Source: Candidatus Pacearchaeota archaeon
Lineage (GTDB): Archaea > Nanobdellota > Nanobdellia > Pacearchaeales > GW2011-AR1
Direction of reading: 5' to 3'
Length of the DNA stretch: 10,469 nt
Assembly: GCA_016234025.1 (NCBI GenBank)
Contig: JACQLL010000086.1
Coordinates: 1 to 10,469 of the forward strand
Positions within the stretch are counted from its first letter, which is position 1, and the number at the start of each line of letters is the position of its first letter. Made by a program: the position numbers and the translations under genes. The notes beneath the pieces were generated by a model. That model worked only from the letters and a program-made list of their open reading frames with translations. It had not been told where the DNA came from and did not search any database. Positions 2,046 to 10,289 of this stretch are shown one piece after another.

Positions 2046-2054
2046 GATTTAAGC
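2046..2054 (-). promoter_or_regulatory. TATA-like box for msrA, overlapping the SMC stop codon
   Basis: The minus strand reads GCTTAAATC, centred about 26 bases before the msrA ATG at 2024. The box sits across the last codons and stop of the upstream SMC gene. It is weaker than the other boxes in the window. Confidence 0.4.
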
Positions 2055-4925
2055 TTTCTCTCCTAGCTTTAAACTCAATATTTTGCTTACTCCCTCGTGC
2101 ATTGAAACGCCGTAGAGAATTTGAGAGTCAAGAATTATTGCATCGTTGTGCGTCACGATAAGATATTGTCCAGATTTAATGTATCGGCTTAAAAGTGAAG
2201 CGAGCCGCTCCGAGTTTCTTTTGTCTAACGCAGCGTCTATTTCGTCGAGAATGTAGAACTGATAGGGGCGATATTCCTGAATTGAAAAAAGAAGAGACAA
2301 TGCGACAAGAGTTTGCTCTCCTCCTGAAAGAGAAGTAACATCAAAATATTTTCCTTTTCCAAGTTTGACGACGATATTTACTCCTCCTTCGAAAATGTCT
2401 TCAGTGTTCTCGACTTCTAAATAAGCCGTTCCTTTCGAAGACAACTTGGAAAAATTATCAGTGAACAAAGAGTTAATTGCATTGAACGTCTTCATAAAAG
2501 TCCTTTTCTTCTTCTTATCAATCTCTTCAATTATTTTTAATATCTCTTCTTTCTCTTTCTCAATTGTTTCTGTCTTTAACTTGACTTTGTCGTATTCTTT
2601 TTTTATTTCGTCGTAAACTTCCAGCGCCCGCATGTTTATTGAGCCGATTGTGTTTAATGTTTCCTGCGATTTTTTCAATCTTTCTTCAAGATAATTCATG
2701 CTTCCCTGAAGAAGTTCAACTCCTTTGTATTCTATCATGTCCATCTCGAGAGTTTCTTTTTCGCCGTCGATTTTCGCCCGTCCTATTTTCAGATAATTTA
2801 TTTGGTCCTCTATCTCCCTTTCTTCGCCTCTCGTTTCAGAAAGTTTAATTCCAAGTTCCTGCACCTCTTTCTGAAAGTCGTCTCTTTCAGAAAACATCCT
2901 GTTAAATCTTTTTGTTAATTCCTTTTCCTGATTTTCTTTTTCCGCCAAATCAGATTCGTTGTTTTCTATTTCAGAAGTTAATTCATCTATTTGAACATCA
3001 ATGTCTTCCAAATCATTCTTGCTTCTTTCAATTATGCTGATTATCTTCTCAAGTTCTCTTTCCTTGTAAAGCAAAGTCGTGTCAACGTCTTCCTCTGTTC
3101 TCGACGATATCTCCTCTATTTCCAAGATTATATTAGAATATTTCTCTTCTATCCGAGACAAATCTTCTGTCTTGTTCTCTAACAGCTTTCTTTTACTTTC
3201 CAATTCTGACAGCTCTTTTTTTACAATCTTCTCGCTTTCAAGATATCTATTCAGTGAAAGTCTTTTCTCGCCTAGACGTTTGTGCGAAGACAGCTCGTTT
3301 TCTGCAGCTCTGATCCCGCCTTCTATTTCTGAAATTGAGGTCTTATTCTTCTCAATTTTTCTTTTTGTTTGCTTGAGTAAATCACTTTGCTTCTCTAATT
3401 CTTCTTTTGCCAAATTAATTTTTTTGTCACAGTCCTCGAAAACATGTTTCAAATGGTTCTCGTCAATCCTGCTCTGGCAAAGAGGACAAATGTCTATTTC
3501 GTTTACTCTATTTTTTATTTCATTATTTCTTTCTATTTCTGAATTTGAAATAGAAATTTTCCTCTCGCTTTGCAGTTCTTCTGAAATCAAAGAGTTAAGT
3601 TCTGCTTTTTTCTTCAAAAGTTCATTCCCGAACTCGGATATAACATGAGAAATTTCTTTTTCGCTGGCATACTTCATTTGCAGAGATATTTCCTCTATTT
3701 GCTTGGCAATCGACTCTGTATCTGCGTTTGCCCTCGACAACTGGCTCTTCTTATCATAAATTCTTTCTTTCAAAGAGTTCAATTCCGTCTTGATTGACAA
3801 GACTCTTTTTCTCTCTTTCTCTATTTCGACAAGCTCCTCTTTTTTCTTCTTTAACTCTTTTGATTTTCTTTCAATCAACGGACTTTTTTCTTTCAATTCC
3901 TTTATTTCTCTCTCTGCTTCGGGAACCGACTTCTTCATTTGTGAAATTCTTCTCTCAACTTCCTCTTTCCTGTTTTCGTACGCCTCTTTTCTTACTTTAA
4001 GCCCTTCCAATTCAGCTCTAACGTTAGTTATCTCTTCTCTTAGTTTTCCCTGTTCATGTCCTGTTGCCTCTCTTATATGCCTGTTTATCTGATTTATCTT
4101 TTCAGACAAAGAGTCGATTTTTTCCTGCAGCATCTCTGCTTCTTTGCTCTTCTTATCTTTCTGGCTCATCTTCATTTCTATCGACTTTAGAATTGCCCCG
4201 ATTTCTTTTTTCTTCTCCTCAAGCTTCTTGAAAGTTATCGATGCTTTGGCTCTTTTCGCAGTTGTCTGAAGTTCTTTGTATCTTTGCGCTTGAGTTTTCT
4301 CTTTCTCTAAATTATTAAGATAAGCAGTCCTTTCTCTCAAGATAGTAGAGATTTCTTTTAGTCGCGATTCTGTTTTCTCGAGTTCTTTGAGGGACTTTTC
4401 TTTTCGCCATTCATAGACAGAGATGCCAGCAACTTCACCGATTATTTTTCTCCTTTCTTCAGGATGCATCTTTACTATCGACTGAATTTGTCCTTGCAAG
4501 ATAATGTTATATCCGTAAGGGTCGATGCCTGCCTGACCGAGAGTTTCGATGACTTCTGCTCTCGTTTTTGTCTCTCCGTTTATCTTATAAATGCTCTGTC
4601 CGTATACTCTGACGATTCTTTTTATCGAGATTTCATCTTTGTCGATTTCAAATGCCCTGTCCGAATTGTCGAAGACGATTTCAACTACTGCTTCTTTCGC
4701 CGGCTTGATGTACTTGGAGCCCATGAAAATTAAATTGCGCGCTTTTTCGGCACGCAATGATTTTACTGAAAGACGACCGAGGACAAAACAAATAGCGTCG
4801 CTAATATTCGACTTTCCCGAACCATTCGGGCCGATTATAATGTTAATTCCTTTGTCGAACGGGATTTCCGTCTTCTTGGCGAAACTCTTGAAGCCGTTCA
4901 TCACCATCCTTTTTATGTGAGCCAT
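2049..4925 (-). CDS. smc: SMC-type chromosome ATPase with a Rad50-like zinc hook instead of a hinge
   Basis: SMC proteins are ABC-type ATPases that dimerise and organise chromosomes. Both head halves here are canonical SMC. The N-terminus has NGFKSFA (10-16), Walker A GPNGSGKS (32-39) and the Q-loop region with Q144 in NIILQGQI. The C-terminus has INMRALEVYDE, signature LSGGEQ (866-871), Walker B with D894/E895 in YILDEIDAALD, and H-loop THND (925-928). Between them, from about residue 155 to 810, is charged coiled coil. Canonical SMCs have about 1150-1190 residues and a globular hinge of about 150 residues in the middle. This one has 958, shows no hinge, and carries CPLC (C480, C483) at the exact midpoint, as in the Rad50 zinc hook. 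The LSGGEQ/DEIDAALD region and GFKSF make it SMC by head, not Rad50. No ScpA or ScpB gene is adjacent. The start is backed by a TATA box 28 bases upstream. Confidence 0.93.
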   Translation of the reverse strand: MAHIKRMVMNGFKSFAKKTEIPFDKGINIIIGPNGSGKSNISDAICFVLGRLSVKSLRAEKARNLIFMGSKYIKPAKEAVVEIVFDNSDRAFEIDKDEISIKRIVRVYGQSIYKINGETKTRAEVIETLGQAGIDPYGYNIILQGQIQSIVKMHPEERRKIIGEVAGISVYEWRKEKSLKELEKTESRLKEISTILRERTAYLNNLEKEKTQAQRYKELQTTAKRAKASITFKKLEEKKKEIGAILKSIEMKMSQKDKKSKEAEMLQEKIDSLSEKINQINRHIREATGHEQGKLREEITNVRAELEGLKVRKEAYENRKEEVERRISQMKKSVPEAEREIKELKEKSPLIERKSKELKKKKEELVEIEKERKRVLSIKTELNSLKERIYDKKSQLSRANADTESIAKQIEEISLQMKYASEKEISHVISEFGNELLKKKAELNSLISEELQSERKISISNSEIERNNEIKNRVNEIDICPLCQSRIDENHLKHVFEDCDKKINLAKEELEKQSDLLKQTKRKIEKNKTSISEIEGGIRAAENELSSHKRLGEKRLSLNRYLESEKIVKKELSELESKRKLLENKTEDLSRIEEKYSNIILEIEEISSRTEEDVDTTLLYKERELEKIISIIERSKNDLEDIDVQIDELTSEIENNESDLAEKENQEKELTKRFNRMFSERDDFQKEVQELGIKLSETRGEEREIEDQINYLKIGRAKIDGEKETLEMDMIEYKGVELLQGSMNYLEERLKKSQETLNTIGSINMRALEVYDEIKKEYDKVKLKTETIEKEKEEILKIIEEIDKKKKRTFMKTFNAINSLFTDNFSKLSSKGTAYLEVENTEDIFEGGVNIVVKLGKGKYFDVTSLSGGEQTLVALSLLFSIQEYRPYQFYILDEIDAALDKRNSERLASLLSRYIKSGQYLIVTHNDAIILDSQILYGVSMHEGVSKILSLKLGEKA

Positions 4926-4968: not shown

Positions 4969-6072
4969 CTATAAACCGAGATCTTTTATTAATGTATCTG
5001 GGTTGTGGGCATAGGATAGCGCTTCTTCTCTGTCTATTGCGCCTGTTTGGCAGAGTTGTTTTATATGCGTGTCCATTAAAATCATCCCGTGTTTTGCTCC
5101 GGTTTGTATAACCGTTGGAATTTGATGATAGTCTCCTTTTCTAATGTGCGTCCGAGCTCCTGCATGTGCCCCAACATTTAATACTTCCATAGCAAGTGTT
5201 CTCTTGCCGTCGCTTTGACGTGGTGGGATGAGCTGTTGTGACAACACATAAACTATGTTGTTGGCCAATGTCCCTCTCACAGAATCTTGTTCAATTGCCG
5301 GAAACAGCTCAGTATATCTGCATGCAGTTTCGCTTGCGTTTTTTGTGTGAACTGTTGCAAAAACCAAATGGCCTGTTTCTGCAGCTTCAAGCGTATGGCG
5401 AGCGGTCTCACGGTCACGCACCTCCCCAACCAATAAAACGTCAGGGTCTTGACGCAATGCATATTTTACTCCATCTGCAAAATTCGAAAGATGAGTTCCA
5501 ATTTCCCTCTGGGAAATAATACTTTTCCTTGGAGAGTAGACATATTCTATGGGATCCTCAAGAGTAATAATATTTTCCGCTCTTGTTTCATTAATCTCTT
5601 GTAACAATGCGGCAAGGGTTGTTGTTTTCCCAGAACCTGTAATTCCCGTAACAAGAACAAGTCCTCTTCGCAATTTTACTATGTCCTGCCAGACTTGTGC
5701 ATTAGGAAAACCAACATCCTTGATACTTCTAATCTCGTTAGGAATAACTCTCAAAGTTGCGTAGCTGCCTGAATTGCTTTTACCCAGATTAACTCTGAAT
5801 CTATAGGTTGTTTTTCTTTCTCTGTCTTCAGCACTAATCGCGCAGTCCAGGTTTCCTGTTTCTCTAAATGCCGTAAGCTTTTCGTCAGGGACAATTGCTC
5901 TGATGAATTTTTCAACGCCCTCGGTATCAAAAACAGCTGTTTCAACTTCCTGTAAATTTCCGCCCTTTCTAATAATCGGTTTTAATCCAGGATTAATATG
6001 AATATCTGATACTCCTGTTCTTGCGGCATTTAACAATATTCTGTCAACTTGTAAAGATTTATCGAGCTGCAT
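4969..6072 (-). CDS. PilT-like type IV pilus retraction/secretion ATPase
   Basis: This is a GspE/PilT superfamily hexameric ATPase, the class that powers pilus assembly, retraction or secretion from the cytoplasmic face of the membrane. Counting from the first possible ATG (6084), it has the N-terminal GVSDIHINPG block (24-33), Walker A GITGSGKT (147-154), the Asp box ITLEDPIEY (173-181), Walker B region LLVGEVRD (217-224) and the His-box region ATVHT. The C-terminal IRKGDYHQIPTVIQTG...GMILMD is the PilT/PilU style, not that of archaeal GspE2/FlaI/VirB11 ATPases. The exact bacterial AIRNLIRE motif is only loosely kept. I prefer the internal ATG at 6072 (367 residues), because the TATA box lies 25 bases before it but only 13 before 6084. 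No pilin, PilB or PilC gene is in the window. A bacterial origin by transfer is likely. Confidence 0.88.
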   Translation of the reverse strand: MQLDKSLQVDRILLNAARTGVSDIHINPGLKPIIRKGGNLQEVETAVFDTEGVEKFIRAIVPDEKLTAFRETGNLDCAISAEDRERKTTYRFRVNLGKSNSGSYATLRVIPNEIRSIKDVGFPNAQVWQDIVKLRRGLVLVTGITGSGKTTTLAALLQEINETRAENIITLEDPIEYVYSPRKSIISQREIGTHLSNFADGVKYALRQDPDVLLVGEVRDRETARHTLEAAETGHLVFATVHTKNASETACRYTELFPAIEQDSVRGTLANNIVYVLSQQLIPPRQSDGKRTLAMEVLNVGAHAGARTHIRKGDYHQIPTVIQTGAKHGMILMDTHIKQLCQTGAIDREEALSYAHNPDTLIKDLGL

Positions 6073-6084
6073 AAAAGCCAACAT

Positions 6085-9236: not shown

Positions 9237-10289
9237 TCACTGCCGCATCGCCCAGTGTTGAAGCGCTTCAAACTTCGGATTTTGTTTCACAACATCAATT
9301 AATGTTTCAAATAAATTTCCGCCTGCGACAACAGGATTTTTGCTCCACCATCTTAAATCGAAAAAGGTGTCTCTTGCGCAGTCCTCGTGTAAAAAAATTC
9401 TTTCGTCCGAAGTTTTTTTATTTCCTCTCATCACAATATTCCCAGTTCTTGGATGACGCGTTATCTCCACTTCTGCGTCATTTTTGTATGAATTTAAATC
9501 TTCATTAAAAAATTTTCTAAGCGTATATGGCTTTGCGACATGATAATGAACAATTCCGTCAAATGCTTGATTTACGAATTGCGCCTCAACATCTAACTTG
9601 TCCCTAATATCATTCATCCAACGAGAAGAAAAAAGTTTTATCTTTAATCTTGGATAGGTAGTATGTATATAACAAGTTATATCCGCGTTATGACCACTGC
9701 TACTATAAATCAACACTTTAGGGCTTTCCAGTTCTCCTCCCCTCCTGCTGGGAGTGTAAGAATTAGTATCGAGAAGTTGACAAACTTTCTTTTCCAATGA
9801 ACTTCTGTCCTCGCTCTTAAAAGGAACAAAACAAAAAGTTAAAGGGGAGATTATAGAATATAATGTTCCGAGGGAAATTGTCTCTTTCTTAACCATGCCT
9901 ATGAGTTCGCTGAATCTTTTAATCCTGCTACTTTTCTTTCTTTGTATCGAATGGGCTCTATTATCACAAATCTCCTCTAAATATTTAAAATCATGTGGAC
10001 TGAAATCTCTGGCTACATTCATCACTCTTTCTAAATACCTTAACGCAATTTGTTTTCCGGTTTTTATAAGCTCTTTTTTGAATATTTCAATTGCTCTGTT
10101 GTCTTCGTCTTTTAGATTATCTACGAAGTTTCCATTGTTGTCAAGAATTGGGAAACTCGTTATTAAAATAGGAGTTACTTGCTTCTCTATTAATCTCATC
10201 ATTTCCCCTTTCAATAAAGCATTGCGCTTTGCTTTTCTCAAATGAATGTCGTGTTCTGCATTTTTGAAAGAGATGTAATGACTACTCAT
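9237..10289 (-). CDS. Hypothetical protein, 350 residues, no recognised family
   Basis: This is a soluble, basic protein without signal or membrane segments. The N-terminal 130 residues are highly charged and helical. Around residues 190-230 there is KVLIYSSSGHNADITCYIHTTYPRLKIKLFSS, a hydrophobic strand followed by a Ser/Gly turn and a second strand, suggesting an alpha/beta fold; whether it binds a nucleotide cannot be told. A later stretch includes RHPRTGNIVMRGNKKTSDERIFLHEDCARDTFFDLRWW. The start is supported by a TATA-like box about 23 bases upstream. The gene stands alone between a palindromic repeat pair at its 3' end and the inverted 91-bp element upstream of its 5' end. The size and clean reading frame make it a real gene, but I cannot name it. 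Confidence 0.72.
   Translation of the reverse strand: MSSHYISFKNAEHDIHLRKAKRNALLKGEMMRLIEKQVTPILITSFPILDNNGNFVDNLKDEDNRAIEIFKKELIKTGKQIALRYLERVMNVARDFSPHDFKYLEEICDNRAHSIQRKKSSRIKRFSELIGMVKKETISLGTLYSIISPLTFCFVPFKSEDRSSLEKKVCQLLDTNSYTPSRRGGELESPKVLIYSSSGHNADITCYIHTTYPRLKIKLFSSRWMNDIRDKLDVEAQFVNQAFDGIVHYHVAKPYTLRKFFNEDLNSYKNDAEVEITRHPRTGNIVMRGNKKTSDERIFLHEDCARDTFFDLRWWSKNPVVAGGNLFETLIDVVKQNPKFEALQHWAMRQ

What the first reader, a model, noticed from the sequence alone, without database searches (positions are those of the whole stretch)
2049..4925. SMC heads joined to a Rad50-type zinc hook with no hinge
Seen: canonical SMC motifs at both ends (GFKSF, LSGGEQ, DEIDAALD), 958 residues instead of about 1150-1190, and C480-P-L-C483 at the exact centre of the chain with no hinge-sized globular segment. 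Known: SMC proteins dimerise through a hinge and Rad50 through a zinc hook. Archaeal SMC-related proteins with zinc hooks (the Sph/coalescin group) have been described, but their heads are not plain SMC. Inference: here the dimerisation module of a true SMC was swapped for, or reduced to, a zinc hook. That would alter how the ring opens and would bear on the common origin of SMC and Rad50.
Basis: partly seen in the sequence, partly recalled or inferred. Interest (0 to 1): 0.78.

Follow-up and report, generated by a model that had tools for sequence, protein, structure and literature searches.

The report
SMC protein with a zinc-hook tip
A whole group of tiny archaea appears to have replaced the hinge that normally joins the two arms of the chromosome-folding SMC motor with a zinc hook like that of the DNA-repair protein Rad50, a swap we otherwise know only from laboratory-made chimeras.

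Summary
Confirmed and extended. The 958-aa protein (2049-4925, minus) has plain SMC heads (SMC_N 182 bits) and no SMC_hinge. At its centre, C480-P-L-C483 sits in a helical hairpin whose family profile finds Rad50 zinc hooks as the two best PDB matches (E 1.3e-6, 2e-6). The 120 listed nearest proteins all keep both cysteines. In its order (Pacearchaeota-type MAGs) 59 of 67 SMCs read have the hook, 8 have neither hook nor hinge, and 0 of 200 genomes have a hinge over cut-off; elsewhere in the class 200 of 219 do. Heads group with hinge SMCs; hook SMC plus Rad50 as one clade is rejected (p 0.0003), though where the long Rad50 branch joins is unresolved (p 0.475). The genome also encodes ScpA, ScpB and a separate Mre11-Rad50 pair with its own hook. 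So it is SMC by descent, most likely dimerising through zinc and working as an Smc-ScpAB ring: a natural counterpart of the engineered Smc(Zh) that supports B. subtilis growth. I found no description in the searched library. Zinc binding, dimerisation and the hook's donor are inferred.

The parts
2049..4925 (-). whole gene: hook-tipped SMC, 958 aa
4416..4925 (-). N-terminal half of the SMC ATPase head (residues 1-170)
   Evidence: SMC_N match 3-136; PDB SMC heads; model
4809..4832 (-). Walker A GPNGSGKS (residues 32-39)
3504..4421 (-). N-terminal coiled-coil arm (residues 169-474)
   Evidence: helices in the model; SMC_prok_A profile match 3-474
3462..3503 (-). zinc-hook hairpin (residues 475-488) between the two arms
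3477..3488 (-). CPLC motif (residues 480-483), the presumed zinc ligands
   Evidence: 120 of 120 listed proteins; invariant in A1
2442..3461 (-). C-terminal coiled-coil arm (residues 489-828)
   Evidence: helices in the model
2313..2330 (-). ABC signature LSGGEQ (residues 866-871)
2223..2246 (-). Walker B / D-loop DEIDAALD (residues 894-901)

Best explanation
This is the cell's SMC by descent, in which the hinge was replaced by a Rad50-type zinc hook. Two copies most likely join at their tips by four cysteines (two CPLC motifs) around one zinc ion. ATP-driven heads bind the kleisin ScpA and its partner ScpB, making a closed Smc-ScpAB ring that folds the chromosome. Since there is no hinge, DNA cannot enter or be held there; opening must happen at the heads, arms or kleisin, and the tip is a plain dimer clasp. 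Shown: sequence anatomy, head ancestry, absence of a detectable hinge, conservation of the hook, presence of scpA/scpB and of a separate mre11-rad50 pair. Inferred: zinc binding, homodimerisation, complex with ScpAB, chromosome function.
For: SMC heads: SMC_N 182 bits, SMC_prok_A 544 bits against Rad50 127 and ASRP 104; 5xei, a Pyrococcus yayanosii SMC head (organism), E 7.6e-105 against best Rad50 6e-15. Head tree: hook SMCs plus short SMCs of the order are one clade (100/99), inside a 98/98 clade with 16 hinge SMCs of the class; Rad50 apart at 100/100; hook SMC + Rad50 as one clade rejected, p 0.0003. Hook: profile against PDB gives the Rad50 hooks 1L8D and 6ZFF as best two (E 1.3e-6, 2e-6); profile-profile 99.2% with Rad50 hooks of the class against 22, 22 and 55% for three control pairs; CPxC in 120 of 120 listed. 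Model: two helices joined by a short hairpin, pLDDT 91.9 for the fragment. Partners: ScpA over cut-off in 46 of 56 genomes and ScpB in 52 of 56, both including this one. Arm length is closer to SMC than to Rad50 and nearly constant: Walker A to first Cys 446-449 in 19 of 24 hook SMCs, Rad50 313-378. An engineered B. subtilis Smc with the Pyrococcus Rad50 hook supports normal growth on nutrient medium (PMC5344682, passages).
Against: No experiment. The query's own hook is below the Pfam hook cut-off. Structural comparison of the hairpin does not single out Rad50: Foldseek gives no match at E 0.001 or better, and unrelated helical hairpins score alike. Eight of 67 SMCs read in the order lack both cysteines and hinge, so the clasp is not indispensable in the lineage. 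The protein falls below the SMC_prok_A curated cut-off (544 against 729); I attribute this to the missing hinge. The Rad50 attachment point on the head tree is unresolved (p 0.475). The assembly is 75% complete, so a second SMC could be missing from it.
Confidence: 0.83

Rival explanations
1. It is a Rad50 or an Sph/coalescin-type (ASRP) protein working in repair, not an SMC.
For: It has a central zinc hook, as Rad50 and ASRPs do (PMC9389158, passages); PRK03918 Rad50 model 127 bits and ASRP 104 bits.
Against: Both scores are far below their cut-offs (700 and 300) and below SMC's 544; head tree and AU test against Rad50 (no ASRP row was in the tree); an Mre11-type gene followed by a hook-bearing Rad50 is elsewhere in the genome; 0 of 237 genomes of the phylum reach the ASRP cut-off, while 2 of 14 control genomes do.
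Confidence: 0.03
2. The hook is ancestral: hook SMC is a relic of the common ancestor of SMC and Rad50, and hinges came later.
For: A tree with Rad50 joined to the stem of the hook-plus-hookless clade is only 0.37 log-likelihood units worse, p-AU 0.475; without Rad50, the 20 hinge SMCs of the class as one clade are not rejected, p 0.073.
Against: Hinges are in 200 of 219 class genomes outside the order and in 10 of 14 control bacteria and archaea; the order lies inside the class by its taxonomy codes, and the best trees nest it among hinge SMCs (98/98, 100/99). The Rad50 branch is very long (3.35 changes per column on either side of the root), so its join carries little information.
Confidence: 0.04
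3. The CPxC binds a metal or forms disulphides within one chain, or binds a partner; dimerisation is by the coils, as perhaps in the hookless relatives.
For: Eight of 67 order SMCs read have neither module yet intact heads; two other lone cysteines exist.
Against: The motif sits at the turn and matches Rad50 hooks over the flanking coils; hooks known from structures bind zinc between two chains (established knowledge of Rad50, recalled).
Confidence: 0.1

Closest known systems
Canonical archaeal SMC (SMC_prok_A, TIGR02169; Pyrococcus SMC)
   Same: Head sequence, order of motifs, long antiparallel arms, scpA and scpB in the genome
   Different: No hinge; arms about 32 and 43 residues shorter on average, head motif to tip (means 449/389 against 481/432); zinc hook at the tip
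Rad50 zinc hook (PF04423; 1L8D, 6ZFF, 5GOX)
   Same: CPxC hairpin between two helices, similar flanking sequence
   Different: Heads are SMC, arms longer than those of the Rad50s of the class, Mre11-Rad50 is separate
Engineered Smc(Zh) chimera of B. subtilis (PMC5344682, passages)
   Same: SMC heads and arms with a Rad50 hook in place of the hinge
   Different: Made in the laboratory; here natural and order-wide
ASRP family: Sph and coalescin ClsN (PMC9389158, part 1 of 4 and passages)
   Same: Archaeal, SMC-superfamily head and zinc hook
   Different: A clade apart from SMC in that paper, shorter (NF045487 has 593 positions), score far below cut-off here
Hinge-less SMCs of marine Actinobacteria (PMC12153180, section 15 read)
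   Same: SMC heads without hinge
   Different: No CXXC there; bacterial. They resemble the hookless SMCs of this order more than the window's protein

Membership tests
SMC (canonical, hinge type) | SMC-type split ABC head (SMC_N over cut-off) | tested here: met
   182.1 against 40 bits
SMC (canonical, hinge type) | head phylogeny with SMC rather than Rad50 | tested here: met
   exact join of Rad50 unresolved
SMC (canonical, hinge type) | SMC_hinge domain | tested here: not met
SMC (canonical, hinge type) | SMC_prok_A equivalog cut-off | tested here: not met
   544 against 729 bits
SMC (canonical, hinge type) | kleisin and kite partners encoded | tested here: met
   ScpA C55, ScpB C56; binding itself not tested
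Rad50 | Rad50-type head | tested here: not met
Rad50 | zinc-hook motif at the arm tip | tested here: met
   own Pfam score below cut-off
Rad50 | gene paired with mre11 | tested here: not met
   neighbours are T2SSE and PMSR; an mre11-rad50 pair is on contig C53
ASRP (Sph/ClsN) | NF045487 cut-off | tested here: not met
   104 against 300 bits
ASRP (Sph/ClsN) | head phylogeny with ASRPs | not tested
   no ASRP sequence was obtained for the tree
Zinc-hook dimer | zinc bound between two chains | not testable with these tools
   no dimer or metal prediction offered

The most novel reading that the evidence does not exclude
In this archaeal order the SMC hinge was discarded once and the tip then evolved freely: a Rad50 hook was taken up (perhaps more than once, from the lineage's own Rad50) and in other branches lost again, leaving functional SMCs with no known dimerisation module. 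The order would be a natural mutagenesis series showing that the hinge fold, its DNA binding and its gate are not needed for an Smc-ScpAB motor.
Probability: 0.4. Interest if true: 0.88.

Novelty: new variant of a known kind. Interest (0 to 1): 0.77.

Why it matters
Whether the SMC hinge is a DNA gate, a DNA-binding site, or just a clasp is a long-standing question. Chimeras suggested that a clasp suffices (PMC5344682, passages; PMC6969161, abstract). A whole order living with a zinc clasp, next to other orders with hinges and cousins with neither, lets evolution answer it, and gives proteins whose ring can in principle be opened by removing zinc.

Tried and rejected
Rad50 and ASRP membership: rejected. 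I had no ASRP sequence for the tree.

Hook origin: an 84-column tree of 51 hook modules is unresolved. Hooks of families f2 and f4 fall near Rad50 hooks of the same order, and none of 200 bootstrap trees has the SMC hooks as one clade, yet the AU test does not reject one clade (p 0.335, in which six rows, on long branches or identical to one, were dropped and 45 of 51 kept).

Arm ancestry by profile comparison: head-proximal arms look SMC-like and the coil next to the hook may be Rad50-like, but coiled-coil background is high (82-96% for 6 of 8 pairs), so I draw nothing from it.

Tip of the hookless SMCs: two protein searches found only itself plus one weak hit or only itself (for the bacterial L118), so no family could be built (alignment). 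An AU test joining hookless archaeal and bacterial SMCs did not finish.

Plasmid search meant also to reach Sph-type sequences gave SMC-annotated or unannotated records, 40 listed of 54.

My final regex tally missed 4 of 67 loci (L015, L036, L048, L049); one search shows them (2 with, 2 without CPxC), and the 59/8 count includes them.

Full report
What is there. The minus-strand ORF 2049-4925 encodes 958 residues with Walker A at 32, signature LSGGEQ at 866 and DEIDAALD at 894, and CPLC at 480-483, the middle of the chain. Pfam finds SMC_N at 182 bits against a cut-off of 40 and no SMC_hinge at E up to 1. NCBIfam ranks archaeal-type SMC first (544 bits, below its curated 729), then SMC_prok_B (525, below 567), Rad50 (127) and ASRP (104). 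Among solved structures the best is 5xei (E 7.6e-105), a Pyrococcus yayanosii SMC head (organism); the best Rad50 is at 6e-15.

Where it is. The window is contig C51 of a 663,516-base assembly, 75% complete. Relatives found by sequence among named genomes are Candidatus Pacearchaeota, Nanoarchaeota or uncultured-archaeon records (18 archaeal loci of 22; the other 4 are bacterial). The order name Pacearchaeales is recalled, not shown by a call.

No hinge in the lineage. SMC_hinge: 0 of 1 own genome; 0 of 200 order genomes over cut-off, with one weak match of 19.4 bits in a 316-aa frame of G166, whose SMC lies on another contig; 200 of 281 class genomes over cut-off. By handle numbers, 219 of those 281 lie outside the order, so 200 of 219. 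The other 19 were searched again with the protein: 13 have no match, 2 have only weak matches, and 4 have SMC pieces at contig ends, so their centres could not be read.

The hook. In the protein database 336 proteins matched residues 330-640; all of the best 120, which were listed, carry the CPxC in the aligned place. A 90-row alignment has C480, P481, C483 and H491 invariant. In genomes of the order I read the centre of 67 SMCs: 59 have the CPxC, 8 do not. These 67 are not a random sample: 51 are the best-scoring loci of two searches (30, 21 new ones), the other 16 were fetched by place. Of the 52 order genomes alone, 48 have a match; 46 centres were read, 38 with hook and 8 without. A profile of 17 hook segments searched against the PDB returns two Rad50 hooks first and second (1L8D E 1.3e-6; 6ZFF, P. 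furiosus, E 2e-6); the human RAD50 hook is fourth at 0.046, behind a coronin coil at 0.034 (that 5GOX is human is recalled). Profile comparison with 22 Rad50 hooks of the class gives 99.2% over 116 of 124 columns; three control pairs of arm segments give 22, 22 and 55%. Both profiles were cut at equal distance from the motif, which helps the register. Pfam's hook model scores 16.7 bits here, below 24.3, but 12 SMC genes of relatives exceed it, 3 of them only with their neighbours in the frame.

Shape. The full-length model (mean pLDDT 76.4, pTM 0.38) has helices 422-474 and 489-586 around a short hairpin; the fragment 410-550 has pLDDT 91.9 and the same form. There is no room for a globular hinge. 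Fold comparison ranks a eukaryotic Rad50 hook first but at E 0.012, with unrelated hairpins close by, so it is weak evidence. From Walker A to the first cysteine 24 hook SMCs measure 442-462 residues (446-449 in 19 of 24), and from the second cysteine to LSGG 382-447 (383 in 14 of 24); hinge SMCs average 481 and 432 to the hinge edges (17 measured), and 12 Rad50s measure 313-378 and 226-240. Constant arm length recalls the tuned arms of Smc (PMC5344682, passages).

Ancestry. A careful tree of 68 head sequences chosen by hand (395 columns; 2 of 22 chosen hinge loci dropped because their heads failed the pattern) puts 24 hook and 8 hookless SMCs in one clade (100/99), within a clade with 16 hinge SMCs (98/98), and 12 Rad50 apart (100/100). 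AU tests: hook + Rad50 rejected (p 0.0003); hook alone as one clade rejected (p 0.0008); hookless alone rejected (p 0.0036); hook + hookless + Rad50 not rejected (p 0.475). With Rad50 left out the clade keeps 100/99, but one clade of the class's hinge SMCs is not rejected (p 0.073). So the heads are SMC, tip types are mixed inside the order (family f4 holds both), and the point where Rad50 joins is open. A late replacement is preferred because the order lies within a class, and among bacteria and archaea, with hinges.

Partners. ScpA is over cut-off in 46 of 56 genomes and ScpB in 52 of 56 (52 of the 56 are of the order); in this genome they are on contigs C55 and C56. Contig C53 carries a metallophosphatase, which I read as Mre11, directly followed by an AAA_23 protein with its own CPTC hook, which I read as Rad50, cut by the contig end; its hook groups with that of another Rad50 of the family (99/97). 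The own-genome SMC_N search shows no second SMC: the other hits were that Rad50, an ABC transporter and a MutS-like ATPase by my reading of their ORFs; the assembly is 75% complete. ASRP: 0 of 237 phylum genomes over cut-off.

How it works. I infer a zinc-clasped Smc-ScpAB ring. A B. subtilis Smc with the Pyrococcus Rad50 hook supported normal growth on nutrient medium (PMC5344682, passages), and a Rad50 with the MukB hinge works in DNA repair in yeast (PMC6969161, abstract). The window suggests that nature made the first of these swaps.

Novelty. Searches of the held library: SMC + zinc hook + hinge + archaea (11 papers), hinge-less and zinc-hook SMC phrases (2), four of five of SMC, DPANN, condensin, ScpA, archaea (51, 20 listed), DPANN + SMC + hinge (2), four of six of SMC proteins, CXXC motif, hinge, Rad50, archaeal SMC, horizontal (24, 15 listed), Pacearchaeota + SMC (2), zinc hook + Nanoarchaeota (0), zinc hook + DPANN (0). 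Beyond the listings I saw part of the text or passages of three papers (PMC9389158, PMC5344682, PMC12153180) and the abstract of a fourth (PMC6969161). Nothing I saw describes a natural SMC with a Rad50 hook. The nearest is the hinge-less actinobacterial SMC without CXXC (PMC12153180). The library lacks most subscription papers and all bioRxiv preprints.

Noticed in passing
L042-L049 (G049, G051, G045, G037, G046, G048, G042, G038; families f4, f6, f7): SMCs of about 800 aa with intact heads and neither hinge nor CPxC; they have a short helical-looking tip region of unknown kind (Pfam scan of two).
   Followed up: partly
L118 (881 aa from 5001) and L119 (723 aa from 5001): Bacterial SMCs, one from Candidatus Jorgensenbacteria, with SMC_N but no SMC_hinge match and no CPxC: another hinge-less group.
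   Followed up: partly
P0007, P0013, P0014, P0016, P0029 and loci L012, L029, L030, L032, L034, L039: SMCs of about 1480-1575 aa; the listed proteins carry intein-type domains (PF14528, PF14890; meaning of the accessions recalled) and in the loci's genomes the match breaks near residues 36-47, i.e. probably an intein in the Walker A loop.
   Followed up: no
G204, G216, G225, G232, G239, G246, G251, G257, G262 (family f13): Nine genomes of one family of the class show neither an SMC_hinge nor any SMC match with the window's protein; SMC may be absent.
   Followed up: partly
G000:C56:7402-7842 and 51 other genomes: ScpB-type proteins are over cut-off in 52 of 56 genomes, whereas the abstract of PMC7055376 (start seen in the listing) says the archaeal Smc complex appears to lack ScpB.
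   Followed up: no
window 4969-6084 minus, 1557-2024 minus: Neighbours on the same strand: a type II/IV secretion ATPase (T2SSE, 161 bits) upstream and a methionine sulfoxide reductase (PMSR, 191 bits) downstream; no obvious link to SMC.
   Followed up: no
window 9237-10289 minus: 350-aa ORF with no convincing Pfam match.
   Followed up: no
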